DNA of 64,000 nucleotides, taken from assembly GCA_001839685.1 (NCBI GenBank), contig MLAK01000738.1, positions 62,001 to 126,000 of the forward strand, read 5' to 3'. The position numbers and the translations under genes were made by a program. The number at the start of each line of letters is the position of its first letter. Positions within the stretch are counted from its first letter, which is position 1. Origin of the DNA: Tritrichomonas foetus (taxonomy: Eukaryota > Parabasalia > Tritrichomonadida > Tritrichomonadidae). Under the pieces are notes generated by a model. The model did no database searches, was not told the DNA's origin, and was given only the letters and a program-made list of their open reading frames with translations. Below are positions 7,523 to 53,901 of this stretch, one piece after another.

Positions 7523-7576
7523 ACAAATAAAAATATTAATATTACTAAATCTTTTTGATATATTTAATCGGGATTA

Positions 7577-7935
7577 GTTTTCTCTTTCCTTATGTTTTCT
7601 CTTTCCTTATGTTTTCTCTTTCCTTATGTTTTCTCTTTNNNNNNNNNNNNNNNNNNNNNNNNNNNNNNNNNNNNNNNNNNNNNNNNNNNNNNNNNNNNNN
7701 NNNNNNNNNNNNNNNNNNNNNNNNNNNNNNNNNNNNNNNNNNNNNNNNNNNNNNNNNNNNNNNNNNNNNNNNNNNNNNNNNNNNNNNNNNNNNNNNNNNN
7801 NNNNNNNNNNNNNNNNNNNNNNNNNNNNNNNNNNNNNNNNNNNNNNNNNNNNNTTGTTTTCTCTTTTCTTATGTTTTCTCTTTTCTTATGTTTTCTCTTT
7901 CCTTATGTTTTCTCTTTTCTTATGTTTTCTCTTTC
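7577..7935. repeat. 17-bp minisatellite, pyrimidine-rich, interrupted by N gap
   Basis: Head-to-tail copies of a 17-bp unit (GTTTTCTCTTTCCTTAT) occur on both sides of a run of Ns (7639-7853). A variant unit with TTTTCTTAT alternates on the distal side. The plus strand is almost pure pyrimidine apart from G and A at the unit edge. It lies 3' of the HDAC gene. Because 17 is not a multiple of three, open frames through it are artefacts. Confidence 0.95.
7639..7853. other. Assembly gap of 215 Ns inside the minisatellite
   Basis: A run of 215 Ns flanked on both sides by the same 17-bp repeat, so the true copy number is unknown. Confidence 0.99.
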
Positions 7936-8039
7936 TAAAAATTAAAAGTAATCTTTTGAATGATGATTCTGACCCAATACATTATTGAAAAGAAACTATA
8001 TGTTTATCTTTCATGATAATGGGATGAAAAAGAACCAAA

Positions 8040-13769: not shown

Positions 13770-16403
13770 ATGATTTTAGTTTTATTTCCATTTATTGCGC
13801 TTTCTATTGGACACGATAGTATACCAATTCTCGATACTTTTTGTTCAGATGATCACCAAGTATATAATTGGTCCGAATACCAATGCGTGACATGCCCGAA
13901 CGATATGGTAAACGTTGATAATGTGTGTAGACCGAATTCTACATACAAATATCTTGATGATTACGTAAATATGACATATACGACAGTTTGCAGCCAAGGG
14001 AAAACCAATTTTGGTCACGGATTGGTTTGTTTTCCAGAAACTTTTTCAATCAATCAATCAATTGTTGATATGAGGAACAAATTTAAAGCAACTTATTACG
14101 ACATTACAACTGGTGTTAACAGCCCCAAAATTTCTGGGACTTTTGAACTCACCGATGAATTTGTTGAACAATATGTATGGGCAGAAATATATCATAGCAT
14201 AGACATTTCAAATCAAACAGCTGTTGGATTTTTAAGTAATGCCTGTTCAGTTTTTAATTATGATATTTCCCTTTATCCATGTGAGCAGTTCCAACTTAAC
14301 TATACTTCGCGAATAAGTGGAAATAAATATGGATACCGATTTTGGCCAGCTCAAGGTCCTTTCATCACGTATGGAAACAATAATCCTTTAAGCTATGTTT
14401 TAGAAGAAGATTATATTTCATCCACATATAATTTTGGACAAATAGTTAACTTTCAACTGGCTAGATTTTCAAAGTATGGTGATTTCAAAGGATTCACACC
14501 ACTAACAATTGATTTTCAGAAATGTGGAGATTCTAATGACATTATTGAACTGTGGAAGCAATTTGGTTATAACTATTATAGTGAATGTTTTGTTGATTTA
14601 AACGAGTTGGTTACAGGTGATTCAACAGATCTTTTTGATGCATTTATCGAAGATGGTGCTGTAAATGGGATACCTGTTTTAAGACCTGTTCCTGTGTTCC
14701 TAAAAAACTATCGTGGTATTCGAGGAGAAGCAGTTAATCGAGGAAAATCTGAAGCAAATTATCGTGCAGTAAGACGATTTTTTGTAAATGATAACTACAC
14801 ATCAAATCAGATCGTTCAACATATGACTAATTTTTCTATTACTTTTAATCTTAAAACAGATAGAAGTAAACAAATACTCCCGCCATTATTTACGATTGAA
14901 TATGATCAAGTTTACAGATCAGATCTTGAAACAAGTGATTTTGTTGTTAAAATAGATGAAGAATCTGTAACGCATCCCACTTATTCATTCAGTGTACTTT
15001 ATGTAATGCAAATGAACGGCTTCTGGAATGCATTAACAATTGTCTTTTCAATTTCTGTTGCTCTTGGTTTTGTGTATATTTGTTTTAAATTATTCATGTT
15101 TCTTCGAACACATGCAACAGATGGTGCTAATTTTTCTTTTATTATGGGAGTTCTTGGTTATATCTTCGACATAGTTGGAACTGTACTTTTTGTTGTGGCT
15201 TTTGCTTTTGCAGTGTATGTTTTTATTTTTTTCAAATTCCAATCAGCTGTCTTTATTTGTCTTCCTCCAGAAGAGGATTTCAAAATTTTAGTTCCAATTT
15301 TATGGACAACATTAGCTTTGAAATTTGTTGGAATGGTATTTTTGATCATTATGAAATCATCTACTAATGTATTCATAATTGATTGGGAAAATCCAAAAGA
15401 AAAAGATATCCCAGTGAGTAGCTGGAGAAGAATTATGGTTGCTAATGAATGGAATAGAATTTTAACAGTGAGACAATATAGTATGCCATTTACAGTTTTA
15501 ACAATGGCATTTATTATTGGTGGATTCAATTTGAATCTTTTGTCTACTCCAATTCCTTCTACAAAACTAATAGATATGGATAAAGAATACCTCATCTTAA
15601 GATTCGCATTTACGTCATTTGTTTGGTTACTTTTAGTGCTTGTAGAGTTTATTTGGTGCAGATTTATATTCTGGCCATTGTTTGGAAATCCATTTCTGAA
15701 TTTTGTTGATTTATGCTCAACATCCAATATTTCTGTTTTAATAAGAATGTCTTCTTTTCAAGGCTATTACATCCATGGAAGAAATACTCATGGACGAGCA
15801 GATGAAGAGCTAAATGAACTTAGAAAACAATTAGATGCAGAGAAGAAAGGACAAGCTCAGCATAGAGGAATATTACCTGATACACCTAATCAAGTTTTCC
15901 AAACATTTTTTGCGCCTGAATTTAGACATCAATTAAATGATCTTTATGATTCTCAACTTGCTCAAACTGGTGCTCCATCAGTGTTAAGTATTCGACCACA
16001 TGTAGCTGGCGATATTCCACATGCTGCATACGAAACAAACCAAGAAGTAAATGATTTCCTCAGAGATTTCTTCTCCAAGAAATCAACAGACCACAGTTTT
16101 GTTATTCAGCCAGAATCATGTTCACAAGAGTTGATAAATTCTGCTCCAACAGTTATTGAAGAATCTGTTTTAACTATTGTAAAGGATTGGATGTATAAAA
16201 ATGCTTTGATTGGCGGAATAGAATGGAGATTGCAGTTGTTTTATTTAGTTATATTTGTTTGTATTGGAATTCCAACAAATTCACCATCTATATCAGCTAT
16301 AGTTGTTTTTATCGTTGATGTGATTATCGTTAAAATATTTAATATGATGGGAAGGGCAAACCTCTCAAAGAAATCTCTTCTTGATGATCGCTTCTTTTTG
16401 TAA
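13770..16403 (+). CDS. Meckelin (TMEM67/MKS3)
   Basis: 877 residues (human about 995). It has an N-terminal signal peptide (MILVLFPFIALSIGHD), then a Cys-rich ectodomain start (CVTCPNDMVNVDNVC). A large ectodomain follows, then several membrane segments from ~residue 415 onward. The family signature is in the C-terminal third: FVDLCSTSNISVLI, GYYIHGRNTHGRAD and the terminal LSKKSLLDDRFFL, all closely matching animal meckelin. Meckelin is a receptor-like protein of the ciliary transition zone MKS module. In a trichomonad it should act at the base of the flagella. No truncation or frameshift is visible. Confidence 0.93.
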   Translation: MILVLFPFIALSIGHDSIPILDTFCSDDHQVYNWSEYQCVTCPNDMVNVDNVCRPNSTYKYLDDYVNMTYTTVCSQGKTNFGHGLVCFPETFSINQSIVDMRNKFKATYYDITTGVNSPKISGTFELTDEFVEQYVWAEIYHSIDISNQTAVGFLSNACSVFNYDISLYPCEQFQLNYTSRISGNKYGYRFWPAQGPFITYGNNNPLSYVLEEDYISSTYNFGQIVNFQLARFSKYGDFKGFTPLTIDFQKCGDSNDIIELWKQFGYNYYSECFVDLNELVTGDSTDLFDAFIEDGAVNGIPVLRPVPVFLKNYRGIRGEAVNRGKSEANYRAVRRFFVNDNYTSNQIVQHMTNFSITFNLKTDRSKQILPPLFTIEYDQVYRSDLETSDFVVKIDEESVTHPTYSFSVLYVMQMNGFWNALTIVFSISVALGFVYICFKLFMFLRTHATDGANFSFIMGVLGYIFDIVGTVLFVVAFAFAVYVFIFFKFQSAVFICLPPEEDFKILVPILWTTLALKFVGMVFLIIMKSSTNVFIIDWENPKEKDIPVSSWRRIMVANEWNRILTVRQYSMPFTVLTMAFIIGGFNLNLLSTPIPSTKLIDMDKEYLILRFAFTSFVWLLLVLVEFIWCRFIFWPLFGNPFLNFVDLCSTSNISVLIRMSSFQGYYIHGRNTHGRADEELNELRKQLDAEKKGQAQHRGILPDTPNQVFQTFFAPEFRHQLNDLYDSQLAQTGAPSVLSIRPHVAGDIPHAAYETNQEVNDFLRDFFSKKSTDHSFVIQPESCSQELINSAPTVIEESVLTIVKDWMYKNALIGGIEWRLQLFYLVIFVCIGIPTNSPSISAIVVFIVDVIIVKIFNMMGRANLSKKSLLDDRFFL

Positions 16404-28119: not shown

Positions 28120-31100
28120 ATGCAATCAGATTTATCAATTTCGCTCAATTCAATTTTTTCCGAAAGAGAAGAAGGGTTTCTCCACTCACTTCAGCAAGCT
28201 TTGTCGGCCGCAACCACTGATAAATACATTCGTCAAATGTTTGATGATAAATTGTCAGCGAATTACGTTCCTGATCGAATTTGTGAACTCATTAAGTTTT
28301 TTCTGAACGACGAACGCGAATTATTTGTTGAAGAGCTGCTTCGCAGATTAAAAGCATTAGAGGCTTGCTTAGGATCAGAGAGGATTAAACAGCTCGAAGA
28401 AATTGGTCAAAGACTGATGGAAGTTTCACAAACGCAGGCACAAAAAGAAGCCGAATACCGAAAATGTGTTCAAATTTTAAATGATCAGATTGGCAATTTT
28501 CAAGAAAATATTGGAGATGAACTTAAAATTATGAAAACTAATGTTTCTTCATTATCTAATTCAACCAAATCTATTTTCAATACACTTCAAAAGTTTAAGT
28601 TGTCGTTAAGTTCAGATTTCCAAGATTTTAAAAAGCAAAGTCGAAAATTGGTCAAAAATTTATCAAACACAAATGAAAAAGTGAATGATCAAATGAAAAA
28701 AATAAAGTCTGATAATTCGAATTTAATGAGACAAGTTAACCAATTAAAAGAGGCACTTGATGAATTAAGAATCTCAAAAGATAATGCATTAAGAGCACAG
28801 GCTGAACAGTTTTACTCAGATATTTCGAAATTGAAAGAAGATTTTAATAATCAAAGAATGGAAGATTTAGAATTAAATAAACAAACAGAAAATCAAATGA
28901 ATCAAATGAGGGAAACATTAAGAAATAAATTTGCAGATAAAATTCAAAAAATTCAACAAGAAGCAGAAAATGCAATTAAAGAGATGAATGTTGCACATGA
29001 CAATGATGTAACAGCACTGCAGAAGAAAGTGAATCGATTAAATGCAAAAAATAATATGCTAAAAGATGAGCTTTCTCAATCACTAAATTCCATAAATTCT
29101 CTTAAAAATGGCCAAGATGTTCAAATACGAAAACTTCAAAATAAAATTCTAAAATTATCTGAACAAAATGAAAAAAACGAAGCAGATTTATCTCGTAAAC
29201 AGGAAAAAATAAAAAAAACTCAACAAGAAAACGATAAACTCAATAATGAAATTCAAATCATTAATCAAAAATTACTTGAAAATGATCGAATGCTTCAAGA
29301 TGCAGCAAAAAATTTAATGCAAAAACAAAATGAAGTTGATCATAATGTTTTCGAAAAAAGTAAATTAATAGCAAGTAAAAATGAAATTAGTCAATCTTTA
29401 TCAAATATGAATGATGAATTAAGAAATAAAGATAAAGAGTTATCTCAAATTCAAGATAAATTGGATGAAGTTAATAAGGAAAAACAGTCAGTTATTAAAG
29501 AAAAAGAGGATATTCAATCTGAACTGAATAATCTCATCAAAAAAGCAAAGAAAAAAGATGAAACAATTGATCAACTTTCTGAAAAAGTAAAAGAAATTCC
29601 AAAATTACAAGATGAAATCGACGATCTAAAAGGAAAAAATGGGAAACTAGAAGAAACTAAAAATGAAAATTCTGAAAACAGACAAACGATTGAAAAACTA
29701 CAAAATCAGAATAAGAAATTGCAAGCTTCTGTAAATAAACTTCAAAATCAAATAAAAGACAAAGATTTTGAACTTGAATCCAAGCAAAATGCAATAGATT
29801 CTTTCGAAAAAGAGAATAATGAACAAACAGATTTGAATACGAAATTACAAACTTCTTTAATGCAAACTAAAGATCAAATTCGGCAAAAAGATAAAGAACT
29901 CAATATGCTTAAGCAAGCAATTGAAGAACAACAGTCAATGACTCAAAGACAGTTGTTTGATTTGGAAAGTATGCAAGCTCAAGTATCGCAAATTCCAACA
30001 TTGCAAAATGAAAAGCAAGATGCAATTATGAAAGCTAATTTATTGGAAAGGCAGAATCACGAATTAAAGTCGAAAATTAATGAATTGCAAATTACCATAC
30101 AACAAGTTAGACAACAGTTACATCAAATTAAAGCTATTGCTCAAGCTGGGCCAAGTAAAGAAGAGCTTTCTAGACAAATTCAAAGTTTATTGAAAGAGAA
30201 CTCCACATTAAAGGTGAAAAATAAAAATTTATTAGGTCAATTACAGTCTTGTCAAGATGAGTTATCCTCGACCAAACACCATTTTGATACTACGACCTCT
30301 CAATTTAGAGAAAAAACGCGAAAACTAAATGAATTACAAAATAAACTAAATTCTTCACAAGAAATTGTCAATGATTCTAAATTAAAAATTGAAGATTTGA
30401 CAGAAAAATGTTCAGAATATGAATCTTCCCTTAAGATTTTGGCGAAAAAATATCAGCAAAAAGATAAATTGATTGGATCCCAGAAAAAATCACAAAATGA
30501 GCTTCGTCGTAAACTTCAAGCATCAGAAGAAAATAACCAAAAATTGAGTTCGTCTTTATCGAATGTAAATAATGAATTACTTAGTTTAAGAGAAGAGTTG
30601 AGAAATAAAAATAATGAAAATGTACAATTAAAAGAAAGCTTAGAGAATAATTCTATGACAGCCAGAGAACTTACTTCTACTCAAAGGTCATTGAATGATA
30701 AAATTTCTCTATTGAACAATTGTGAAGAAAGAAATGCAGCATTACTCAGAGATATTGAAAAGAAAGAAGCGAAAATTGGCCAACTTTCCGATACTTTAAT
30801 GGAAAAAGACAAAGAAATTCAAAATTTGAAACAAGCGCAATATACTCAAAAGAAACAAAACGAAACTTTAACAGCACTAACTCAAGATCAACAGCGCCAA
30901 CTTGATGAAGGTCATAGGAATCTAATGAAGATGCAAGAAGAAATTTTACGGGTTCAAAATGAAGCCCTATCAAAGGGAGATTCAATAAAAGCTATTGAAG
31001 TTGATCACAATAGAGAGGCGGAAGGTCGAAAGCAAATTCAAGCATTAATCAATGAGGACAGAGAAAAATATCGTGAAAGAATAACTAAACTTCAAGATGA

Positions 31101-34100
31101 CAATTCTTCTTTATTAGTCGAAAAAGCAGAATTAGAACATAAAATTAATCAAATCAAATTTGAAAATCAAACACTCTCCCAGCTCTTAGAATCAAAAGAA
31201 AGTGAATTATCTTTTGAAAAAGAACGGGGAAATCAAGATTTATTATCTACAAGAGAAATGACAAGCAAGATTATGGTTGAAAATAAACAACTTAGGCAAA
31301 AGCTTAACGACAAAGAACAATATGATAAACAACTCCTTGCTCAAATCCAAGAGTATATCAAATCTTTAATTAATCTTGATGATATACCTGAATTATCTCG
31401 TAAAATGATGGAAACTCAAGAAGAGCTTCAAGAAATCTGTGACACTTTAAACGTAAAAGATCCCTCAGAAATTCCTGGGGAAATTGACCGAATTAGAGAC
31501 TTAAATAAAGCTCTTAAAGCTAATGAAAACAAGCTTCATTCACTATTTCCAGATAATAATGCTGATGATATTTTTAATTTGATTAGCAATTTGAAAAAAG
31601 AAAACTCAGAACTTCAAGAAATGAAATCACAACTTCAACAACTTACAAAATCTAGTAATATTATCAAAAGTGTTCAATCACTTCTTCTAACTATCAAAGC
31701 GTTTGACAAAAGAGAAACCGAATTAATCCGAATGATACCCAATTATGAATTTGAAAATTTAACTAAAGATATTGCCAAATTGTTAAAAGATAATCAGAAA
31801 CAAAATAATTTATTGGAAGAAATCAAAATTGAATCTGGTTCTAGTTCTATTGACTCAATTCCTTCTATAATTTCTGAGGCAATTAATAAATTGAATTTTT
31901 ATACAAATATTGAGAAAAATTTGAAACAATTGATTCCAATTTCTTCAATGTCAGAAGCCTCTGATTATATTGAAAAAATATTAAAGTCAGATGATGAACT
32001 AGGTCTTGAACTAAGTAAAGCCAATGCATGTATTCCAAGTGAATATGAAGGCGATTTATCATCAAAAATTTCAAATCTTGCAAAAGATAATCTAGAAAAT
32101 AAATCAACAATTAAAAGTATAATAAAAGGTCTTCCCGAACACCTGCAAATGACAAATGATTTATCAGGAACTGTTTCAAAAATTGCCCATGAAAATGAAG
32201 AACTAAAAAGACAACACAAAGATATCTTAAATACTCATTTAAACAATGCACTACAAAATAATCGTGAGCTTCTTAAAGAAAGAAACCAAATTGCCTTAAA
32301 TCTCAATTGTACTGAATCTGATGATCTTCCTGAAAAAACGCTTGAGGTGATCGAAGAAAAAAATAGATTTTTGCAAATGGTCGAAGAAATCGAAGGAATT
32401 TTACCAAAGTCTTCTAAGGGAACTGACATTTTTTCTCGGTTGAAATTTTTATTAAAAGAGTTAGAAAATTCACAGAAAGTCTTGAAAGCTATTCGACATT
32501 CAATTGATTCAGATGATGATCATCTTATTAATAATGTAAACAACTTAGTGAAAAAGTTTGCAGATTCGGAAAATTTATTAAATGAAATAGAAAGTTATTT
32601 CCCACCTAGCCATGAAATTCTCTCTGATAGAGTAAAATATTTAATTGATAACTCAAACGAAATGAATGAACAACTTCAAGCTTTAAAAAATCTTTTCCCT
32701 AAGTCAAATAAAGATCTCCAAAATGATGTCGCAAATCTCCTGAAAGAACATAATCATGTTAATCAAACAATCAAGCAATTAAATGAGATTATCAATGGTG
32801 AAAATAATCATGACAATATAATTGAGAAAGCTAAAGAAATGAAAGAAAAGATTGAAAAAGGTGATCAATTGTTAACGAAAGTAAAGGATATCTTGAATGA
32901 TCCAACACTTGAAAATGACAATGTTCCTCCAAGTTTACAAGCCCTTGTCAAACACATACAAAAGCTTGAAAATAAAATGAAAGAAATTGATGGATTGTTA
33001 CCAAAATCAAAAGGACAAGAAGATGTTGTTACAAAATTAAAACGAGAAAAGAAGAGAAAAGAAGATCTTAAAAAATTACTGGATAATATCATTAATTTAC
33101 TTCCACATTGTTCGACGGAACAAGAAATTGAGAGGAGTCTTTCCGAAATTTTGGAATTTTTGAAGTCACTTTATCATTTAATTTATATTCAAAATATAGA
33201 TAAAATGAAACGAGTTATAAAAACAGATATAAAGACACAAGAAGCAGATTTATTAAGCATTCAATGTATTGAATATGAACAAATTATAGATGATCTTCAG
33301 CATATTTTCGAGGAATTTCAACATAATATCGTGATTCTTTCAGATTTTGATCAAATATTACCTCGAAATAAAGATACTAATATCATTAATCGTTTGAACA
33401 AAGAGCTTCAGAAAAAGAAACAACAAGAAGATTTATTGAACGAAATTCAAAAAGCATTATCACAACGAAATCATCATACTACCGATATATTATCATGCCT
33501 TCAAGAAGAACTGGCTTTATCAAATGACCTTCAAGACATTGTAGAAACACTACATTCAATTTTACCTCAGAATCATGATGATAGAAATCGGTTCGAAGAT
33601 GATTTTGATGCAGAAAAGCGTGAATTCAATCGAAGTATTATTCCAAAAGTCCAACAAGAAATCGATATGAAAAATTCCTTCCAGAAGAAGATTTTGGAAA
33701 TAGAGAATCTTCTTCCTAAAAGTAAAGATGATAATCTTTCAAACCGTCTCAAGAAAGAACTTGATAAGAAAGAACAACTTCAGAAACAACTTGATGATTT
33801 ATCATCACGTTTTGATCATTGTAAAACATTTGATGATCTTTCTTCACACATTTCTGAACTTCTAAGAAATAATTCCAATTTGAAAAATATTTTATATCAG
33901 ATAGATGGTTTGTTTAGTGAAGTTCAGAATAAAGTAATTAATGACTATGACGAAGAAGATGAAAAAGAAAAAGACGACTTTTCTTATCTTATTCAAATAA
34001 TTGGTCAGTATATTGATAATACAAATTCTCTCAAAAGAAAACTCGAAGAAATTGAATCACTCCTACCAAAATATAAAAACCAAGGTGATTTGGTTTCAAG

Positions 34101-34743
34101 ACTCAAAGATGAATTCAATAAAAAAGAAAAAGTTCAACAGCTTGCAGGAAAACTTCAAAATATCATTCCAGGTGTTAAAACTCCAGAAGAACTCGCTAAA
34201 AAAGTCCAGAAAATCCTCCAAGAAAAAGAAATTCAAAAAACTATTATTGAACAATTAAATGATATCCTTCCAGAACTCAGCGAAAATAGAACTTCAAACT
34301 ATGATGAAGAGGAAGATGATAATCAAATGATTGAAATTGGTCATAATTTGCCAAAACGAAGTCAAGATATTATGAATAAGTATAATCAAATGAAAACTTT
34401 ATTAGACGCAATAAATAATTTACTACCTCAAAATAATAAAAATGATTTAATTACTAAGCTTAAAAAAGAATTAAAGAATAAAGATAGGGTTCAACAACAA
34501 ATGGAGAAATTGAATAACTTATTAGATAGTACTTCCGGTAATGGTGCAGATCTTTCGTCGAAATTAAAAGATTTAATTCAAGAAAATGAAGAAATGAAGC
34601 AACAGCTTGATGAACTTGATTCTACTTTACCTCAAACCAATGAGGATGACGATCTTTTAACTCGTATTAAGAAACTAATAAAATCGAAAGAAAATCAAGA
34701 CTCATTGGTTACTGAAATTGAATCTACTTTACCNCTCGATTAA
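28120..34743 (+). CDS. Giant coiled-coil protein, N-terminal part (same gene as 34737-40211)
   Basis: The frame runs 2207 codons from ATG and ends at a stop created just after an ambiguous base (N at 34734). That stop is probably an assembly artefact. Residues 1-110 are globular-helical (SIFSEREEGFLHSLQQAL ... ELIKFFLNDERELFVEELLRRL). Residues ~110-1080 are classic continuous coiled coil. From ~1090 on, the coil is broken into units with a recurring 'hhPxS' hinge (for example EIEGILPKSSK, EIDGLLPKSKGQ, EIENLLPKSKDD, EIESLLPKYKNQ) followed by a Lys/Glu helix such as RLKKELDKKEQLQKQL. No motor or kinase domain is visible. A scaffold of cytoskeleton or basal body is plausible but unproven. Confidence 0.85.
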   Translation: MQSDLSISLNSIFSEREEGFLHSLQQALSAATTDKYIRQMFDDKLSANYVPDRICELIKFFLNDERELFVEELLRRLKALEACLGSERIKQLEEIGQRLMEVSQTQAQKEAEYRKCVQILNDQIGNFQENIGDELKIMKTNVSSLSNSTKSIFNTLQKFKLSLSSDFQDFKKQSRKLVKNLSNTNEKVNDQMKKIKSDNSNLMRQVNQLKEALDELRISKDNALRAQAEQFYSDISKLKEDFNNQRMEDLELNKQTENQMNQMRETLRNKFADKIQKIQQEAENAIKEMNVAHDNDVTALQKKVNRLNAKNNMLKDELSQSLNSINSLKNGQDVQIRKLQNKILKLSEQNEKNEADLSRKQEKIKKTQQENDKLNNEIQIINQKLLENDRMLQDAAKNLMQKQNEVDHNVFEKSKLIASKNEISQSLSNMNDELRNKDKELSQIQDKLDEVNKEKQSVIKEKEDIQSELNNLIKKAKKKDETIDQLSEKVKEIPKLQDEIDDLKGKNGKLEETKNENSENRQTIEKLQNQNKKLQASVNKLQNQIKDKDFELESKQNAIDSFEKENNEQTDLNTKLQTSLMQTKDQIRQKDKELNMLKQAIEEQQSMTQRQLFDLESMQAQVSQIPTLQNEKQDAIMKANLLERQNHELKSKINELQITIQQVRQQLHQIKAIAQAGPSKEELSRQIQSLLKENSTLKVKNKNLLGQLQSCQDELSSTKHHFDTTTSQFREKTRKLNELQNKLNSSQEIVNDSKLKIEDLTEKCSEYESSLKILAKKYQQKDKLIGSQKKSQNELRRKLQASEENNQKLSSSLSNVNNELLSLREELRNKNNENVQLKESLENNSMTARELTSTQRSLNDKISLLNNCEERNAALLRDIEKKEAKIGQLSDTLMEKDKEIQNLKQAQYTQKKQNETLTALTQDQQRQLDEGHRNLMKMQEEILRVQNEALSKGDSIKAIEVDHNREAEGRKQIQALINEDREKYRERITKLQDDNSSLLVEKAELEHKINQIKFENQTLSQLLESKESELSFEKERGNQDLLSTREMTSKIMVENKQLRQKLNDKEQYDKQLLAQIQEYIKSLINLDDIPELSRKMMETQEELQEICDTLNVKDPSEIPGEIDRIRDLNKALKANENKLHSLFPDNNADDIFNLISNLKKENSELQEMKSQLQQLTKSSNIIKSVQSLLLTIKAFDKRETELIRMIPNYEFENLTKDIAKLLKDNQKQNNLLEEIKIESGSSSIDSIPSIISEAINKLNFYTNIEKNLKQLIPISSMSEASDYIEKILKSDDELGLELSKANACIPSEYEGDLSSKISNLAKDNLENKSTIKSIIKGLPEHLQMTNDLSGTVSKIAHENEELKRQHKDILNTHLNNALQNNRELLKERNQIALNLNCTESDDLPEKTLEVIEEKNRFLQMVEEIEGILPKSSKGTDIFSRLKFLLKELENSQKVLKAIRHSIDSDDDHLINNVNNLVKKFADSENLLNEIESYFPPSHEILSDRVKYLIDNSNEMNEQLQALKNLFPKSNKDLQNDVANLLKEHNHVNQTIKQLNEIINGENNHDNIIEKAKEMKEKIEKGDQLLTKVKDILNDPTLENDNVPPSLQALVKHIQKLENKMKEIDGLLPKSKGQEDVVTKLKREKKRKEDLKKLLDNIINLLPHCSTEQEIERSLSEILEFLKSLYHLIYIQNIDKMKRVIKTDIKTQEADLLSIQCIEYEQIIDDLQHIFEEFQHNIVILSDFDQILPRNKDTNIINRLNKELQKKKQQEDLLNEIQKALSQRNHHTTDILSCLQEELALSNDLQDIVETLHSILPQNHDDRNRFEDDFDAEKREFNRSIIPKVQQEIDMKNSFQKKILEIENLLPKSKDDNLSNRLKKELDKKEQLQKQLDDLSSRFDHCKTFDDLSSHISELLRNNSNLKNILYQIDGLFSEVQNKVINDYDEEDEKEKDDFSYLIQIIGQYIDNTNSLKRKLEEIESLLPKYKNQGDLVSRLKDEFNKKEKVQQLAGKLQNIIPGVKTPEELAKKVQKILQEKEIQKTIIEQLNDILPELSENRTSNYDEEEDDNQMIEIGHNLPKRSQDIMNKYNQMKTLLDAINNLLPQNNKNDLITKLKKELKNKDRVQQQMEKLNNLLDSTSGNGADLSSKLKDLIQENEEMKQQLDELDSTLPQTNEDDDLLTRIKKLIKSKENQDSLVTEIESTLXLD
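32965..34733 (+). repeat. Internal tandem duplication, copy 1
   Basis: Copy 1 of a duplicated coding segment. 32965-33196 is identical to 35292-35523 and 33621-34733 is identical to 35969-37081 by direct reading. The block between them (33197-33620) is clearly related but diverged. Confidence 0.95.
34734..34734. other. Single N marking a probable collapsed-repeat junction
   Basis: The bases before it (33621-34733) are identical to 35969-37081, and the bases after it (34735-34877) are identical to 38704-38846. The join therefore jumps about 1.6 kb relative to the second copy, and it shifts frame by one. This is a mis-join or closed gap, not a natural stop. Confidence 0.85.
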
Positions 34744-37700
34744 AGCAAGAATTTGATAAGAACAAGAAGAATGAAGAAGAACTTCAACAACTTTATTCAC
34801 ACTTTTCCAATAATGACAACATTTCACATATTTTAGAAGAAATTTCACAATATCGTCATGAAATTGAAGAACTTACTGACATTTTCAAAAATGAAATTCG
34901 ATCTAATCCACAACATTCTCAAGAAGATCTTTCACAAGAAATTTCTCCGATTATTCTTGCTCATCGAATTTTAGCTGATAAAAAAGAAAATGAAAACATC
35001 ATTCAAGAGATTGATTCGATTTTGCCTGACTCAAAATCAACAGATACAACTATTAATAAAGTAAGGAAAGTTCTTGCTCTCAATCAACAGTTAGATAAGA
35101 ATTTTAAAGCCATTCAAGATATGTTCCCTGATGCAAAATCAACACAAGAAATCATTTCAAAAATCCGTGAACTTCAAGAGCTTGGTGATATGTCTAAAGA
35201 TGAGCTCGATGAATTATATAGCATTTTTTCAGATTCTAATGATAGCAATATTAAGGATAATATTGAAAAGCTTGTTAAGAATAAGAAAGAACTTGAAAAT
35301 AAAATGAAAGAAATTGATGGATTGTTACCAAAATCAAAAGGACAAGAAGATGTTGTTACAAAATTAAAACGAGAAAAGAAGAGAAAAGAAGATCTTAAAA
35401 AATTACTGGATAATATCATTAATTTACTTCCACATTGTTCGACGGAACAAGAAATTGAGAGGAGTCTTTCCGAAATTTTGGAATTTTTGAAGTCACTTTA
35501 TCATTTAATTTATATTCAAAATAAAGATCAATTGAAATTAATATCAAAGTACAACATTGAAAATGAGAGTGATTTGAATCTCGAAAATATTAGATATGAA
35601 CATATTATAGATGATCTTCAACAATTTTTCAAAGAATATAAACGAAATATGAATATTCTCTCCGATTTGGATAAATTATTGCCCAAAAATAAAGATCCTA
35701 ATTTAATGAATCGATTAAATAAAGAACTTCAAAAGAAGAAACAACAAGAAGATTTATTAAAAGAAATAGAAAACACCTTACCACAACGAAATCAAAGCAA
35801 TGTTCCTTTGATTACACGGCTGAAAAATGAATTGAATTTATCAAACGACCTTCAAGACATCATAAATAAAATTCATTCAATTTTACCACAATACAAAGAA
35901 AATACCAATCATTTTACTAATACTGAAGATGAATATGAAAGTGATAATGAAAGTATTGAAGATAAGAATGAATTCAATCGAAGTATTATTCCAAAAGTCC
36001 AACAAGAAATCGATATGAAAAATTCCTTCCAGAAGAAGATTTTGGAAATAGAGAATCTTCTTCCTAAAAGTAAAGATGATAATCTTTCAAACCGTCTCAA
36101 GAAAGAACTTGATAAGAAAGAACAACTTCAGAAACAACTTGATGATTTATCATCACGTTTTGATCATTGTAAAACATTTGATGATCTTTCTTCACACATT
36201 TCTGAACTTCTAAGAAATAATTCCAATTTGAAAAATATTTTATATCAGATAGATGGTTTGTTTAGTGAAGTTCAGAATAAAGTAATTAATGACTATGACG
36301 AAGAAGATGAAAAAGAAAAAGACGACTTTTCTTATCTTATTCAAATAATTGGTCAGTATATTGATAATACAAATTCTCTCAAAAGAAAACTCGAAGAAAT
36401 TGAATCACTCCTACCAAAATATAAAAACCAAGGTGATTTGGTTTCAAGACTCAAAGATGAATTCAATAAAAAAGAAAAAGTTCAACAGCTTGCAGGAAAA
36501 CTTCAAAATATCATTCCAGGTGTTAAAACTCCAGAAGAACTCGCTAAAAAAGTCCAGAAAATCCTCCAAGAAAAAGAAATTCAAAAAACTATTATTGAAC
36601 AATTAAATGATATCCTTCCAGAACTCAGCGAAAATAGAACTTCAAACTATGATGAAGAGGAAGATGATAATCAAATGATTGAAATTGGTCATAATTTGCC
36701 AAAACGAAGTCAAGATATTATGAATAAGTATAATCAAATGAAAACTTTATTAGACGCAATAAATAATTTACTACCTCAAAATAATAAAAATGATTTAATT
36801 ACTAAGCTTAAAAAAGAATTAAAGAATAAAGATAGGGTTCAACAACAAATGGAGAAATTGAATAACTTATTAGATAGTACTTCCGGTAATGGTGCAGATC
36901 TTTCGTCGAAATTAAAAGATTTAATTCAAGAAAATGAAGAAATGAAGCAACAGCTTGATGAACTTGATTCTACTTTACCTCAAACCAATGAGGATGACGA
37001 TCTTTTAACTCGTATTAAGAAACTAATAAAATCGAAAGAAAATCAAGACTCATTGGTTACTGAAATTGAATCTACTTTACCAAAATCAAACAATCAACTT
37101 GGCATTGTTTCTCGAATCAAAAATGAATTAAAACAAAAAGAAAAATTGCAACAGCAATTGGATTCTTTGAAATCTATCTTGAATACTCCAAACAATAGTG
37201 ATATCATTAATCAATACAAAGAAATGGCACAAGACAATTCTGATATGAGACGAATTTTGGATGAAGCGAATGGTTTATTAAGTTCACATGATGAAGATAT
37301 CATTCCTAAAATTGAAAAATTGTTAAAACAAAAGGAAGAGCAAGCTCAAACAATTGAAGATATTGAAGGAATTTTACCAAAATCTAAAACTAAAGACAGT
37401 ATTGTTAAGCGCATTCAAAAAGAACTTCAAAAGAAAGATGAATTACATAAACAACTTGAATCAATGAAATCCGTCTTGCCAGGTAACAAATTGTCTGGTG
37501 ATATATCTGACTATCTTAAACAACTATTAGATGAAAATAATTTGTTGAAACAACTAAATGAAGAAATTAATGATATTCTTCCTTCTGGAGATGAAGAAAT
37601 GCTTGCAAAAATCCAAAATATGACACAAGAAAATGAAAATCTTAAAAAACAAGTCAGTGAAATCGATTCTCTTGTTCCAGGTTCACCAAGTCGAGAAAAT

Positions 37701-40211
37701 ATTGTTGATAAACTGAAAAAGGAATTTAAGAAAAATCAAAAAACACAACAAAATCTTAATTCCCTCATGTCTCTTTTACCTGAAGTTAGCACACCTGAAG
37801 AATTGTATGTTGCTCTCCAAAATATCATGACAGATAATAATATAATGAAACGAGATTTGGAGAATATAGGATCAATATTTGCTGAAGGTGATGAAGATTT
37901 GCACAGTAAAGTACAATCTTTAATGAAAGAAAATGATGGACTGAATCATTTAGTGAATGAAATTGATTCATTAGTACCAAAACAAAAAGGAAAACAAGGA
38001 ATTATTGATAGGTTGAAATCTGAGTTCAAATCTAAAGAAAAACTTCAAAAGAAATTAGAAGAAATGAATGATTTAATGAATTCTTCTAAAACCTCATTAA
38101 ATGATCCTATGTCATCCCTTCAATCTCTTCTCGAAGAAAATTCTAATCAACGTGAACTTCTTGAAACTATTTCATCTATTCTTCCAACTAAAGAAGGAAT
38201 CGAAGAGAATGATATTATTTCACAAAGTCAATTTGCCGTTGACGAAATTTCTCGATTAAATGGAATAATTGAAGATATTGAACGATTATTACCAACAAGT
38301 AAAACTAATGATAATCTTATTTCCCGATTGAAGAAAGAACTTGAACATAAAACTAAATTTGAGAAAGGAATTGAAAACATTCAAGAACTTCTTCCAACAT
38401 GTAAAAATATTAATGATCTTCCTACTACCATTTCTAATCTTCTAGAATTGAAAGAATTATTCAAGCATTATGTTTCCGATATTGTTTCTATTGTAAATCA
38501 ATCTAACAATAATCAACGTGAATCTGAAAAAGAATATGAGACAGAAAATGAAATTAGTGATGATTATCCAGAAAATGAAGGGAAAGAATTTTTGAATGAA
38601 TTAGAGAAACTTATGAATGAATTTGAAGAAATGAAAACAGAACGAAGACAAATTGAAGAATTACTTCCTAAGATTAATAATAAGAACAAAGAATCACTTT
38701 TAACTCGATTAAAGCAAGAATTTGATAAGAACAAGAAGAATGAAGAAGAACTTCAACAACTTTATTCACACTTTTCCAATAATGACAACATTTCACATAT
38801 TTTAGAAGAAATTTCACAATATCGTCATGAAATTGAAGAACTTACTAACATGTTTGAAAGTGAACTTTCACCTCAACATAATTATTCTGATTATGAAAAT
38901 GATTCTGTGATCGAATTAGCTAAGAAAGTTATAGATGACAAAAAAGAAAATGATAAGATTATTTCAACCTTAGAAAAAATTATTCCAATGAAAGACAAGA
39001 AGGGAGATATTGTTGTCAATGCCAAAAAACTTGTCGATGAATATGATAATTTAATGAAACATGTGAATAAAATCATGAAGATCCTGCCAAAATCTAATAG
39101 CTTTGATGATATTACAAAAAGTATTCAAGAAATAATGGATGAAAAAAATGAATTAAATAATAAAATGAATCAATATCAAACGATCTTCCCAATATCAAAT
39201 TCACTTGATGATTTGGAGAACCTACACATAAATGAAAATGGTGTTGTTGAAGATATTCCGACGCGACTGAAAAGATTGATCAAGGAGAAAAAAGAAGTTT
39301 GTGAATTACTTGGTGTTCCTGATGATATTAAAGCTGCAATTGACGTGTTACTCGATGAAAATAAAACCTTGAAGAAGGAAAACGGAGAATTATACCTGAT
39401 TATTAATCAATTAAAGGAATTGTTTGAAGTTAAATCTCATTCAGAACTTGTTGATGCAGCAATTCACCAAAGAGAAACAATTGAATCAACTTCTGATCTA
39501 TTTGTTAAGCTACTTGAAATTTTGGCAGGACCAATGAATACATCAATAACACTCAGATTGCCAATTTCTCCACAAATAAAAGAAAAACTTTGGAAGATTC
39601 TCACTGAAATGAAACAGAAAATGAATGACACTGATGAAAAAATAATCCACATTTTGACAAAAGCAAAACGTGCAGGATACGAAGGAATAGATCCGTGCGA
39701 TGCTGTAAAATTCTTGGAAGAAACTGCAACTCTTTATGAACAGCAAAGAGTGAATGAATTTTTCCATGGTCAAGTCTCAAGTATTCGTGAATTAATGAAT
39801 GAACAGCATAAAACATATGAAAGTACCAAAAATAAATATAATCGACAAGCCAAAGAGCAAAAAGAAATGTTATTAGAAATGCAAGAAAAATTTGCTCTAA
39901 GGGAAGAAGAAATGATGCAGGAATGTGAAGATGTAAATAATCAAATGATTGCATTGAAAGAAGAGCTTGAAAAGGCAAATAAACTAAAAACAGAAATTTT
40001 ACGATTAGCATGCGGACAAGCAGCAGATATGGAATATTTAAGATCAAATATGAGTAGAACAGAAAATTCATTATTGAAAAATGCTGAAAAAATGAGAACT
40101 ATTGTTGCACAAGTCCAAGCAAGGTCAGCCAATAAAAAAAAGAGTACAAAAGTACAAAAGAAACCACAGGTAGAACATTTGTCTGTTCAGCCTGAAAAGC
40201 CAACTCAATAA
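34737..40211 (+). CDS. Giant coiled-coil protein, C-terminal part
   Basis: Open without interruption from just after the N to the stop. The first ATG is only in its 'SKST' region and is not a real start. The part before it (RLKQEFDKNKKNEEELQQL...) is coding and matches an internal segment at 38706 onward. It continues the proline-hinged coiled-coil units (EIESTLPKSNNQ, DIEGILPKSKTK, EIDSLVPGSPSR, EIDSLVPKQKGK, DIERLLPTSKTN, QIEELLPKINNK), with units every ~80-100 residues. It then changes to a uniform coiled coil over the last ~350 residues and a basic C-terminus (RSANKKKSTKVQKKPQ). It belongs to the gene starting at 28120. The true protein is probably above 4,000 residues. Confidence 0.85.
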   Translation, partial: RLKQEFDKNKKNEEELQQLYSHFSNNDNISHILEEISQYRHEIEELTDIFKNEIRSNPQHSQEDLSQEISPIILAHRILADKKENENIIQEIDSILPDSKSTDTTINKVRKVLALNQQLDKNFKAIQDMFPDAKSTQEIISKIRELQELGDMSKDELDELYSIFSDSNDSNIKDNIEKLVKNKKELENKMKEIDGLLPKSKGQEDVVTKLKREKKRKEDLKKLLDNIINLLPHCSTEQEIERSLSEILEFLKSLYHLIYIQNKDQLKLISKYNIENESDLNLENIRYEHIIDDLQQFFKEYKRNMNILSDLDKLLPKNKDPNLMNRLNKELQKKKQQEDLLKEIENTLPQRNQSNVPLITRLKNELNLSNDLQDIINKIHSILPQYKENTNHFTNTEDEYESDNESIEDKNEFNRSIIPKVQQEIDMKNSFQKKILEIENLLPKSKDDNLSNRLKKELDKKEQLQKQLDDLSSRFDHCKTFDDLSSHISELLRNNSNLKNILYQIDGLFSEVQNKVINDYDEEDEKEKDDFSYLIQIIGQYIDNTNSLKRKLEEIESLLPKYKNQGDLVSRLKDEFNKKEKVQQLAGKLQNIIPGVKTPEELAKKVQKILQEKEIQKTIIEQLNDILPELSENRTSNYDEEEDDNQMIEIGHNLPKRSQDIMNKYNQMKTLLDAINNLLPQNNKNDLITKLKKELKNKDRVQQQMEKLNNLLDSTSGNGADLSSKLKDLIQENEEMKQQLDELDSTLPQTNEDDDLLTRIKKLIKSKENQDSLVTEIESTLPKSNNQLGIVSRIKNELKQKEKLQQQLDSLKSILNTPNNSDIINQYKEMAQDNSDMRRILDEANGLLSSHDEDIIPKIEKLLKQKEEQAQTIEDIEGILPKSKTKDSIVKRIQKELQKKDELHKQLESMKSVLPGNKLSGDISDYLKQLLDENNLLKQLNEEINDILPSGDEEMLAKIQNMTQENENLKKQVSEIDSLVPGSPSRENIVDKLKKEFKKNQKTQQNLNSLMSLLPEVSTPEELYVALQNIMTDNNIMKRDLENIGSIFAEGDEDLHSKVQSLMKENDGLNHLVNEIDSLVPKQKGKQGIIDRLKSEFKSKEKLQKKLEEMNDLMNSSKTSLNDPMSSLQSLLEENSNQRELLETISSILPTKEGIEENDIISQSQFAVDEISRLNGIIEDIERLLPTSKTNDNLISRLKKELEHKTKFEKGIENIQELLPTCKNINDLPTTISNLLELKELFKHYVSDIVSIVNQSNNNQRESEKEYETENEISDDYPENEGKEFLNELEKLMNEFEEMKTERRQIEELLPKINNKNKESLLTRLKQEFDKNKKNEEELQQLYSHFSNNDNISHILEEISQYRHEIEELTNMFESELSPQHNYSDYENDSVIELAKKVIDDKKENDKIISTLEKIIPMKDKKGDIVVNAKKLVDEYDNLMKHVNKIMKILPKSNSFDDITKSIQEIMDEKNELNNKMNQYQTIFPISNSLDDLENLHINENGVVEDIPTRLKRLIKEKKEVCELLGVPDDIKAAIDVLLDENKTLKKENGELYLIINQLKELFEVKSHSELVDAAIHQRETIESTSDLFVKLLEILAGPMNTSITLRLPISPQIKEKLWKILTEMKQKMNDTDEKIIHILTKAKRAGYEGIDPCDAVKFLEETATLYEQQRVNEFFHGQVSSIRELMNEQHKTYESTKNKYNRQAKEQKEMLLEMQEKFALREEEMMQECEDVNNQMIALKEELEKANKLKTEILRLACGQAADMEYLRSNMSRTENSLLKNAEKMRTIVAQVQARSANKKKSTKVQKKPQVEHLSVQPEKPTQ
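35292..38846 (+). repeat. Internal tandem duplication, copy 2
   Basis: Copy 2 of the same segment. Its far end (38704-38846) is identical to 34735-34877, which defines the copy as ~3.5 kb and the repeat period as roughly 3.9 kb if copy 1 is restored to the same length. Confidence 0.85.
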
Positions 40212-40443: not shown

Positions 40444-41729
40444 GGGTGTCCGGTAATGTGATGTCACTNAGTNTAATNAAGTCATTTCTAATAAGTNATN
40501 TTTTATTGATAAGTATTTCAAAATATGTAGTCTCCATTGGCATCAATAACTTTTTTCAGTCTATTTTGCCATTCTGCAAAAACTGAAAACAAAGTTTCCG
40601 ATGGAATTTCATTGAAAATTTGGACTATTGTTTGAATCAAATGGCTTGGTGATTCAAAAACAATTCCTTTAACTTTTTCTTTAATAGTTCCAAATAAAAA
40701 AAAGTCGCTAGGCGCCAAATCAGGTGAATATGCCGGATGTGGAACTGATTCTAGTGAGTTTTCATTTATATATTTTTTGACAATTTTTGCCACATGAGGC
40801 TTTGCATTGTCATAATGAACAAATAATTTTTTATAATTATTCGAGTTTTTAAACTCAACAATTTTTGACATAATGGCTGTAATATAATATGCAGCATTAA
40901 ACTTTTCATTTGGCGGCAAAACATCAATATGAATTATCCCATGAGGGTTCCAAAATACAGTCACCATAAATTTAGTGATCTGAAACCCTGGATTTTGAAT
41001 AGTTGGGATTACTGAGTTTTCAGGAATCCATTGTGTATTGAAATCAGTCTTGGAATAAAACCAAGACTCATCTCCTGTTATTAAAAAGGTGAAATTAGTT
41101 TTTTGTTCTGCATTCAAAATTTTAAGAAGTTTTTTTGCCAATAAAACTCTATTGGCCTTTTGATTTTCTGTTAGAATATGTGGCACCCATCGAAGATGCA
41201 CATGTTTATACATTAATTTTGATGTTAAACGATCATAAATTGTCGATTTTGGTTCACCTAAAACATTAGCAATATATCGACACGATGAATGTGGAAATTC
41301 GGTTAAAACATCTAAAATTTTCCAGTCAAGAATATCATAACTTTGGCACTTTTTCTCTTTTTTCACAGGCTGTGTGTTTTGACTTCTGTTCAGTTCTGCC
41401 ATGACTCGGTAGATTTGTCTTTGAGACAAACATTTTTCTTTCAAGACACTCTTCATTTCTTCATATATTTCTTTGCCCCTTTTTCCTTCAAGCTGCAGAA
41501 AAGTTATGATTGAATGTTGATCAATCATTTTTTAATAAACGTGCATCGTGTACGTTTATAAATTATTCTTTTTTTTTATGAAAAAGATTCTTTATCTCTA
41601 TTTTCAGTCAAGAGAAAAAAAAATTGTTTTCAAAATTTTTATGTTAACATTGCATAGTNTATTATTTATAAATATNATGTATTGATTNCNCTTCTAATGT
41701 GGGTAGTGACATCACGCCTCCGGACACCC
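40444..41729 (-). mobile_element. Mariner (Tc1/mariner, DD34D) transposon, Tvmar-like
   Basis: 1286-bp element flanked by TA on both sides (40442-40443 and 41730-41731). The terminal inverted repeats begin GGGTGTCCGG and share GTGATGTCACT after three or four mismatches, which gives about 25 bp at each end. It carries one intact transposase gene on the minus strand. Size and layout match the mariner elements known in trichomonads (Tvmar1 is about 1.3 kb). Nine ambiguous bases lie in the two non-coding ends (40469-40500, 41659-41690). That suggests many near-identical copies were merged in the assembly. Confidence 0.95.
40518..41528 (-). CDS. Mariner transposase
   Basis: 336 residues, full length for mariner (about 340-350). 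The N-terminal ~110 residues form the paired helix-turn-helix DNA-binding region (QRQIYRVMAELNRS; SSCRYIANVLGEPKSTIYDRL). WVPHILTENQKANRV is the family linker motif. The catalytic triad is intact: D in TGDESWFY, D in FVHYDNAKPH, and D in YSPDLAPSDFFLF with exactly 34 residues between the second and third. It cuts at the element ends and inserts at TA. No internal stop or frameshift, so it could be active. Confidence 0.97.
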   Translation of the reverse strand: MIDQHSIITFLQLEGKRGKEIYEEMKSVLKEKCLSQRQIYRVMAELNRSQNTQPVKKEKKCQSYDILDWKILDVLTEFPHSSCRYIANVLGEPKSTIYDRLTSKLMYKHVHLRWVPHILTENQKANRVLLAKKLLKILNAEQKTNFTFLITGDESWFYSKTDFNTQWIPENSVIPTIQNPGFQITKFMVTVFWNPHGIIHIDVLPPNEKFNAAYYITAIMSKIVEFKNSNNYKKLFVHYDNAKPHVAKIVKKYINENSLESVPHPAYSPDLAPSDFFLFGTIKEKVKGIVFESPSHLIQTIVQIFNEIPSETLFSVFAEWQNRLKKVIDANGDYIF

Positions 41730-51446: not shown

Positions 51447-52398
51447 TTAAGGATAAACTCCGGTGAAGTGATGACAAATCGACGATAAGAAACTTTTTGA
51501 TGAAAAAAGTCCTTTTTATAAACGTGCTTTTTTTATCAATTTTGAATCCATGTTCTATCTATCCACTCAGTATTCGGAAATTCGGTTTATCTCATTTAAT
51601 CAAAACAATAATCATCCACAAAGCAGCTATAAAGCCGTCCTCTAACAAGGGAGTTCAAATTAAAGATCCTAGAATGCAAAAAGTTATCCAAAATTATTAT
51701 TTTCTCCTTCGCCGGGATCTCTTCCCAAAGTTATGAGCAAAATATATATCTTCAAAATTTTTTTATAGATTTTCATAGCAATACACTAATCATCTTTTTT
51801 GTCAAATATAAAAATAATTCATTTTTTAATTAATATTCATTTCATCAATGAAGATAAATCTAATGCATTTCTGGAGACAGATTCTTACTACCAGAGATAA
51901 GTTACAAAAGAAGTTCGGTATGTTAACAATCTATTTTTCCTTAATATTTTCATCACAGTGATTCTGGAAAGTAACTCGTTATAACTTATAAATTCTTTAT
52001 TGAATGCTACTATATATATTATTGTACACATCTATAAAATATGATAATTAAATATCATTTAATTTCAATACTTTGACCTAATCTCTAGAATTCAAACTCA
52101 TGTAACAAAACATAATATAACATCTAAATAGTGAATTTAAGAAAGCAATAATAATCATTTGAAATAGCTTTGGGGAGAAAAAAAAAACAGGACGATACTC
52201 CGAATTCAAAGGAATAGCAAAAGCACATCAGCACATTGAAACATAGTGATGTATGAATATCTTTTTGAGTATCATCTTTCTTTTTTTATTCTCCTCTTTT
52301 AATTCAATAGTATTTTTGTCAACGTAAAGATTTTACTTGGTTCTTTAAGAATAAGATTTAGTGATAAATTCGCTTCATTTACCCAATTATATTTCAAT

Positions 52399-53389
52399 NN
52401 NNNNNNNNNNNNNNNNNNNNNNNNNNNNNNNNNNNNNNNNNNNNNNNNNNNNNNNNNNNNNNNNNNNNNNNNNNNNNNNNNNNNNNNNNNNNNNNNNNNN
52501 NNNNNNNNNNNNNNNNNNNNNNNNNNNNNNNNNNNNNNNNNNNNNNNNNNNNNNNNNNNNNNNNNNNNNNNNNNNNNNNNNNNNNNNNNNNNNNNNNNNN
52601 NNNNNNNNNNNNNNNNNNNNNNNNNNNNNNNNNNNNNNNNNNNNNNNNNNNNNNNNNNNNNNNNNNNNNNNNNNNNNNNNNNNNNNNNNNNNNNNNNNNN
52701 NNNNNNNNNNNNNNNNNNNNNNNNNNNNNNNNNNNNNNNNNNNNNNNNNNNNNNNNNNNNNNNNNNNNNNNNNNNNNNNNNNNNNNNNNNNNNNNNNNNN
52801 NNNNNNNNNNNNNNNNNNNNNNNNNNNNNNNNNNNNNNNNNNNNNNNNNNNNNNNNNNNNNNNNNNNNNNNNNNNNNNNNNNNNNNNNNNNNNNNNNNNN
52901 NNNNNNNNNNNNNNNNNNNNNNNNNNNNNNNNNNNNNNNNNNNNNNNNNNNNNNNNNNNNNNNNNNNNNNNNNNNNNNNNNNNNNNNNNNNNNNNNNNNN
53001 NNNNNNNNNNNNNNNNNNNNNNNNNNNNNNNNNNNNNNNNNNNNNNNNNNNNNNNNNNNNNNNNNNNNNNNNNNNNNNNNNNNNNNNNNNNNNNNNNNNN
53101 NNNNNNNNNNNNNNNNNNNNNNNNNNNNNNNNNNNNNNNNNNNNNNNNNNNNNNNNNNNNNNNNNNNNNNNNNNNNNNNNNNNNNNNNNNNNNNNNNNNN
53201 NNNNNNNNNNNNNNNNNNNNNNNNNNNNNNNNNNNNNNNNNNNNNNNNNNNNNNNNNNNNNNNNNNNNNNNNNNNNNNNNNNNNNNNNNNNNNNNNNNNN
53301 NNNNNNNNNNNNNNNNNNNNNNNNNNNNNNNNNNNNNNNNNNNNNNNNNNNNNNNNNNNNNNNNNNNNNNNNNNNNNNNNNNNNNNNNN
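52399..53389. other. Assembly gap of 991 Ns
   Basis: Unsequenced run inside the TTAA-flanked element. The open frame drawn through it is meaningless. Confidence 0.99.
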
Positions 53390-53901
53390 GTTCGTTTTCT
53401 TCTTCTACTTTATCTTCAAATCTTTTTAAACGTAAACCCCTTTTATTTGTGGAATTTTATATAATTTTTTTAAAAAATACATCTGATTAAATTTATGAGT
53501 TAGTCATGGATCAATGATAGTTTTATTGTTGGGATATCATAAGTTGAATCGATCAGTTGTATTAAATTCTTTAGAATAATTTTTAATTGGTTCTATCAGT
53601 TTGAATTCTATTGATGAATATTAAAAATAATTAATTATGCTTTATAATTTTTATAAATATTGAAATGAGTTTAATTACTTTCTTTCTTTGTTATTTAACA
53701 ATCATTGAAATATTAATGATTGGTAATATCGAAATCATTGGAAAATAATGGTGATAAAAAGTGCCAAAATTCGACTTCTTCTTCCATTTTTCATATATTT
53801 TACTATTTTTCGTTAAATTAAATGTAATACATGACTTGTAATTGAAGTTCATCTTTAAAAAATGGAATAATATGGAGTAGCTAATTTTTCTATTAAATTT
53901 G

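What the first reader, a model, noticed from the sequence alone, without database searches (positions are those of the whole stretch)
28120..40211. One giant coiled-coil gene (>4,000 residues) split by a collapsed tandem duplication
Seen: 33621-34733 equals 35969-37081 and 34735-34877 equals 38704-38846, so the single N at 34734 joins positions that are ~1.62 kb apart in the second copy and shifts the frame by one. Restoring a collinear copy would add about 1.6 kb and reopen the frame from 28120 to 40211. The stop at 34741 is therefore probably false, and gene models splitting here are wrong. Inference: a full protein of roughly 4,500 residues with a ~3.9-kb tandem duplication.
Basis: partly seen in the sequence, partly recalled or inferred. 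Interest (0 to 1): 0.75.

Follow-up and report, generated by a model that had tools for sequence, protein, structure and literature searches.

The report
Giant coiled-coil gene split by assembly gap
In the draft genome of the cattle parasite Tritrichomonas foetus, one very large filament-type protein gene has been cut in two by an unresolved gap inside a duplicated stretch, so the public gene model stops about half-way; the gene is one of a family of similar large genes in this parasite.

Summary
The window is Tritrichomonas foetus, very probably the strain K short-read draft. The lone N at 34734 joins points that are 1,622 bp apart in copy 2, and the frame changes there.

That the two ORFs are one gene was shown without using the repeat: 12 of 12 relatives (11 T. 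foetus paralogs, one 3,570-aa protein of unnamed source) match an N-terminal domain at their start and a C-terminal domain at their end; among 191 window frames the N-domain profile hits only ORF1 and the C-domain profile only ORF2. The stop at 34741 is an artefact; TRFO_05683 (2,207 aa) is truncated.

Two corrections. The duplication is old (dS about 1.0 outside the identical blocks), so the exact blocks mean later gene conversion or cross-filled assembly. And 1.6 kb is only one estimate of what is missing: continuity of the frame cannot fix the size, and a residual gap of one N, not about 1,600, speaks against a long piece. The two sides encode 4,028 residues; about 4,570 if copy 1 is collinear.

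Likely function, inferred only: cytoskeletal scaffold.

The parts
28120..34733 (+). 5' part of the gene (ORF1; its public model TRFO_05683, 2,207 aa, runs on to the stop at 34741-34743, so its last residues come from beyond the N)
   Evidence: open frame, 2,204 codons up to 34731; named
28120..28509 (+). conserved N-terminal domain (about 125 residues)
   Evidence: profile of 11 paralogs and P0003, window left out: iE 5e-47, only hit among 191 window frames; alignment A3
28510..31419 (+). coiled-coil zone with 7-residue period (residues up to about 1,100; end approximate)
   Evidence: autocorrelation peaks at 7, 14, 21, 42
31543..39092 (+). zone of 'LLP' units, 17/34-residue period, first to last motif match, interrupted by the N
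   Evidence: 13 + 23 motif matches against shuffle means of 1.7 and 2.4 (with a slightly wider pattern 14 + 24); periods
32944..34733 (+). duplication copy 1, left arm (outer limit approximate)
   Evidence: alignment to 35271-37081
33621..34733 (+). block identical to 35969-37081 (1,113 bp)
34734..34734 (.). single N: false join of non-collinear sequence
34735..34877 (+). block identical to 38704-38846 (143 bp), right arm of copy 1
34741..34743 (+). false stop codon produced by the frame change at the N
34737..40211 (+). 3' part of the gene (ORF2 frame, 1,824 codons plus stop)
   Evidence: C-domain hit
35271..39240 (+). duplication copy 2 (right limit approximate)
39360..40163 (+). conserved C-terminal domain
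   Evidence: profile of 7 paralogs and P0003, window left out: iE 1.4e-71, only hit among 191 window frames

Best explanation
28120-40211 is one gene of Tritrichomonas foetus for a giant coiled-coil protein: N-terminal domain, heptad coiled coil, long array of about 34-residue 'LLP' helix units, C-terminal domain. An old tandem duplication inside the array has been partly homogenised between its copies. The longest homogenised tract could not be resolved from short reads; a gap was left in copy 1, extended from both sides, and ended in one N at a false join, which shifts the frame, gives a false stop and splits the gene. The protein is most likely a structural scaffold of the parabasalid cytoskeleton (striated fibre or microtubule-organising centre). 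Shown: identities, frames, shared architecture of the family, age of the copies. Inferred: the gap-filling history, the size of the missing piece, the function.
For: Exact identities and frame switch at one N. N-domain only in ORF1 and C-domain only in ORF2 among 191 frames, and both ends present in 12 of 12 relatives; direct BLASTP of the window N-end hits 11 of 11 paralog ORFs at 1e-14 or better, and of the window C-part the ends of 9 of 11. P0003 aligns with ORF1 (150-2204 to 17-2128) and with ORF2 (1-1822 to 1698-3570) as one 3,570-aa protein. ORF2 has no stop in 1,824 codons and no 5' boundary but the N. dS about 1.04 and dN about 0.29 between the blocks against 0 in blocks of 61 and 370 codons. 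AllPaths-LG plus GapFiller draft; GapFiller extends both edges and closes only on overlap.
Against: No reads could be examined. GapFiller history is inferred, and the announcement's reference for GapFiller is a different program of that name from the one whose paper I consulted. One N instead of about 1,600 does not fit a long missing piece if the gap estimate was good. No sequence or fold evidence for a cytoskeletal role: no Pfam family above its cut-off, no convincing PDB match, both models of low confidence. The N-profile was built with the paralogs it is then counted on; only the window was held out for it.
Confidence: 0.75

Rival explanations
1. Same single gene and same false stop, but copy 1 is genuinely shorter than copy 2 (an internal loss of up to about 1.6 kb inside the repeat array), and both extensions stopped at the branch point where the copies part. 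Little sequence is then missing, and the protein is nearer 4,030 than 4,570 residues.
For: The residual gap is one N, while other unresolved gaps in the window kept 215 and 991 Ns. GapFiller's authors say extension halts where alternatives are equally supported (passages). The frame test allows it.
Against: A direct junction would drop the loop between two helix units and break the 34-residue register, and the two break sites in copy 2 are no more alike than random pairs from the repeat zone (score 67; control median 66, 95th percentile 90, n = 267).
Confidence: 0.35
2. The blocks next to the N are not real copy-1 sequence but copy-2 sequence pulled into the copy-1 gap during gap filling, so the 100% identity there is an artefact and not gene conversion.
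For: Identity jumps from about 0.7 to 1.0 at 33621 and falls back after 34877; both blocks end exactly at the N.
Against: A third exact block, 32965-33196 (232 bp), lies about 1.5 kb from the N, so homogenisation seems real in this gene; conversion tracts also have sharp edges.
Confidence: 0.3
3. Two real adjacent genes, or a real frameshifted pseudogene, with the N a single miscalled base.
For: The sequence as printed reads so; a public protein ends there.
Against: ORF1 lacks the C-domain and ORF2 the N-domain, while 12 of 12 relatives have both; ORF2 stays open for 1,824 codons with no 5' boundary of its own; a miscalled base does not explain flanks 1,622 bp apart in copy 2.
Confidence: 0.03

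Closest known systems
TRFO_05683, hypothetical protein of T. foetus (P0002)
   Same: It is the 5' part of this gene.
   Different: 2,207 aa; ends at the false stop; lacks the rest of the repeat array and the C-domain.
P0003, 3,570-aa protein, source ENA, organism not named
   Same: Same N-domain (64% identity over 84% of residues 1-160), heptad zone, 'LLP' zone and C-domain in one protein.
   Different: About 460 residues shorter than the two window parts together; aligned once to the region that the window has in two copies (ORF1 ends at 2128, ORF2 begins at 1698).
P477, atractophore-associated giant coiled-coil protein of Trichomonas vaginalis (review passages, PMC13071381)
   Same: Very large trichomonad coiled-coil protein, proposed scaffold.
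   Different: Sequence not at hand; homology not tested; the name-based size is my reading.
Costains 1-3 of the T. foetus costa (review passages, PMC13071381)
   Same: Predicted helical coiled-coil cytoskeletal proteins of the same species.
   Different: Main costa bands are given as about 100-150 kDa; this protein is several times larger. Sequence relation not tested.

Membership tests
N-domain/C-domain coiled-coil family of T. foetus (defined here) | N-terminal domain at the start | tested here: met
   ORF1 frame iE 5e-47, window held out
N-domain/C-domain coiled-coil family of T. foetus (defined here) | C-terminal domain at the end | tested here: met
   ORF2 frame iE 1.4e-71, window held out
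N-domain/C-domain coiled-coil family of T. foetus (defined here) | both domains in one reading frame | tested here: inconclusive
   True of 12 of 12 relatives (10 read whole; C858 and C211 in two adjoining stretches); interrupted in the window by the N
P477 (T. vaginalis atractophore protein) | sequence homology | not tested
   P477 sequence not retrieved; three protein searches returned only TRFO_05683, P0001 and P0003
P477 (T. vaginalis atractophore protein) | location at the atractophore | not testable with these tools
   needs microscopy
Costains | sequence homology to costain 1-3 | not tested
   costain sequences not retrieved
SMC / Rad50 | score above the curated cut-off and an ATPase head | tested here: not met
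   best SMC match 69.9 bits against a cut-off of 567.35, within the coil only
Dynactin subunit p22 (PF07426) | score above Pfam's cut-off | tested here: not met
   19.9 bits against 25.2; matched by 1 of 12 family members

The most novel reading that the evidence does not exclude
The gene belongs to an undescribed, expanded parabasalid family in which two conserved end domains cap coiled coils and, in some members, arrays of proline-punctuated 34-residue helices; array length changes by tandem duplication and gene conversion, so the protein could act as an evolvable ruler that sets the spacing of a striated cytoskeletal fibre.
Probability: 0.15. Interest if true: 0.55.

Novelty: new member of a known kind. 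Interest (0 to 1): 0.33.

Why it matters
The public model of this gene is cut short by an artefact, so searches, proteomics databases and domain surveys that use it miss the 3' part with its C-domain. The family (at least 12 genes in this assembly, counting this one) gives two sequence markers for giant coiled-coil proteins in a group whose striated fibres are described in a recent review as made of not yet completely characterised proteins (PMC13071381, passages). More generally, homogenised tandem copies inside long genes are a predictable way for short-read drafts to split them.

Tried and rejected
Two genes or a pseudogene: rejected on the family architecture. SMC/Rad50 and Dynactin p22 membership: coil-only or weak matches below cut-off; CCDC93_CC likewise (E 0.0015, 18.1 bits against 30). 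Weak PDB matches (kinesin E 0.011, dynactin subunit 3 E 0.29; GntR regulators E 0.2-0.59) were not taken as relatives. Structure prediction: repeat zone mean pLDDT 50.8, N-domain 48.5, both too poor, so no fold search was run. A scan for the initiator-like motif TCAYTW gave 482 matches in the window, too common to be of use. Pfam accessions listed for P0002 by the protein search (PF27241, PF24161) did not appear in hmmscan here and were not followed. Self-comparison of P0003 by BLASTP showed only the main diagonal, but so did ORF2 against itself, which has known repeats, so it says nothing. Paper searches: TRFO_05683 in no paper held; costa, P477, atractophore and filament searches gave mainly one review; 'costain' alone matched 'costaining' papers. 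Unresolved: to which organism P0003 belongs.

Full report
What was checked. Inside 28120-40211 there are three exact direct repeats of 25 bp or more: 232, 1,113 and 143 bp. In the 63.7-Mb assembly the 1,113-bp block was found twice and the 1,622-bp stretch between the copy-2 partners once.

Where it comes from. A protein search names ORF1 as TRFO_05683, hypothetical protein of Tritrichomonas foetus. That this is the strain K draft is inferred from the locus tag and the make-up of the assembly; the held copy has 63.7 Mb in 1,064 contigs, the paper gives 68.5 Mb in 1,573 scaffolds, so some scaffolds seem to be left out. The draft was made from Illumina reads with AllPaths-LG and improved with GapFiller using Illumina and 454 reads; 62% of the genome was estimated to be repetitive (PMC5399258, text part 1 of 2 read). 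The deposited protein ends at the stop at 34741.

One gene, shown without the repeat. Searches of the same genome with ORF1 and ORF2 found 11 other loci (10, one more, C946; the tool scores only the best candidates, so this is a lower bound). All 11 were fetched; none of the 11 stretches printed holds an N. In alignment A3 the 11 N-ends are 26-49% identical to the window's. An N-profile from these 11 plus P0003, and a C-profile from seven of them plus P0003, both without the window, were run on 191 window frames of 60 aa or more: N hits only the ORF1 frame (iE 5e-47), C only the ORF2 frame (iE 1.4e-71). The four paralogs left out of the C-profile also match it (C858 8.5e-41, C163 1.1e-25, C211 3e-22, C511 2.5e-13). 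So 12 of 12 relatives have both ends. Ten were read whole; C858 and C211 were read in two adjoining stretches, and one search reports open frames of 3,744 and 3,489 aa for them. Direct BLASTP is weaker at the C-end, as expected for coiled coils: of 11 paralogs 10 match at 1e-3, one of them (C858) not at its end because that stretch was cut, and C211 not at all for the same reason. P0003 (3,570 aa, unnamed source) aligns with ORF1 over 150-2204 to 17-2128 and with ORF2 over 1-1822 to 1698-3570 (weaker, off-register alignments are listed too, as coiled coils give).

Age of the duplication. Aligned as codons, 33190-33620 and its partner differ at dS about 1.04 and dN about 0.29 over 141 codons; a further 20 codons at the left edge give dS 0.61 and dN 0.10. 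The identical blocks have no difference, silent sites included, over 61 and 370 codons. The gaps in that alignment are whole codons by construction, but both copies stay open. So the duplication is old, the lower dN suggests that both copies were kept under purifying selection, and the blocks were made alike later. Gene conversion is the natural reading. Pulling copy-2 reads into the copy-1 gap is the rival for the two blocks that touch the N, less easily for the 232-bp block about 1.5 kb away.

How the split arose (inferred). By its paper, GapFiller extends both edges one base at a time and closes only if the extensions overlap by at least 10 nt and fit the estimated length within 50 nt (passages of PMC3446322). 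Caution: the announcement's reference for GapFiller 1.11 is a different program of the same name. Single Ns also occur elsewhere in the window, mostly in small clusters; the one at 34734 differs by its non-collinear flanks.

How much is missing. The 1.6 kb assumes collinearity. Frame continuity cannot decide the size. For a shorter copy 1: one N is left, while two other gaps in the window keep 215 and 991 Ns. Against a direct junction: it would break the 34-residue register, and the two break sites are no more alike than random pairs of the repeat zone (score 67, control median 66, n = 267). The two sides alone encode 2,204 + 1,824 = 4,028 residues; the collinear case gives about 4,570.

What the protein looks like. 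N-domain; up to about residue 1,100 heptad periodicity; then an array of 'LLP' units with peaks at 17 and 34 residues; then the C-domain. Motif matches are 14 in ORF1 (mean of 300 shuffles 1.7, maximum 6), 24 in ORF2 (2.5, 7) and 30 in P0003 (3.9, 11). Among the paralogs the motif exceeds every shuffle in 3 of 11 (L027, L029, L035) and not in the other 8, two of the 11 (L032, L035) being incomplete; so the array marks some members only. No Pfam family reaches its cut-off and no PDB chain matches convincingly. Both AlphaFold models are of low confidence; the repeat model shows helices mostly of 25-36 residues separated by short loops, weak support at best.

Function. A scaffold of the cytoskeleton is the best guess from the architecture. 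A review describes P477, a large coiled-coil protein at the T. vaginalis atractophore, and coiled-coil costains in the T. foetus costa (PMC13071381, passages). Homology to either was not tested. No paper held mentions TRFO_05683.

Verdict. A true assembly artefact, correctly spotted, with its size claim open and its age corrected. The by-product, an apparently undescribed family of large proteins with conserved ends, is of moderate interest; that it is undescribed rests only on the searches and on the family libraries used.

Noticed in passing
own-genome loci L027-L039: Eleven paralogous ORFs of about 1,100 to 3,700 aa share the N- and C-terminal domains; no Pfam family above cut-off at the N-end. 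An apparently unnamed expanded family.
   Followed up: partly
13770-16403 (+): Meckelin (TMEM67), full-length Pfam match, E 5e-175: a ciliary transition-zone protein by general knowledge, in a flagellate.
   Followed up: no
9580-11589 (+): Cullin-family ORF with the ANAPC2-like TPR domain: probable APC/C subunit 2.
   Followed up: no
7639-7853 and 52399-53389: Gaps of 215 and 991 N; the ORFs listed across them (7555-7988, 52361-53464) consist largely of N and are not evidence of genes.
   Followed up: no
40469-40500 and 41659-41690: Two clusters of single Ns (5 and 4) in short A+T-rich stretches on either side of the ORF at 40518-41528 (-); both lie next to a similar TGATGTCACT-like / AGTGACATCA-like sequence in opposite orientation, possibly the ends of an inserted repeat element.
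   Followed up: no
1-801 (+): The end of another coiled-coil-like ORF enters the window at its left edge.
   Followed up: no
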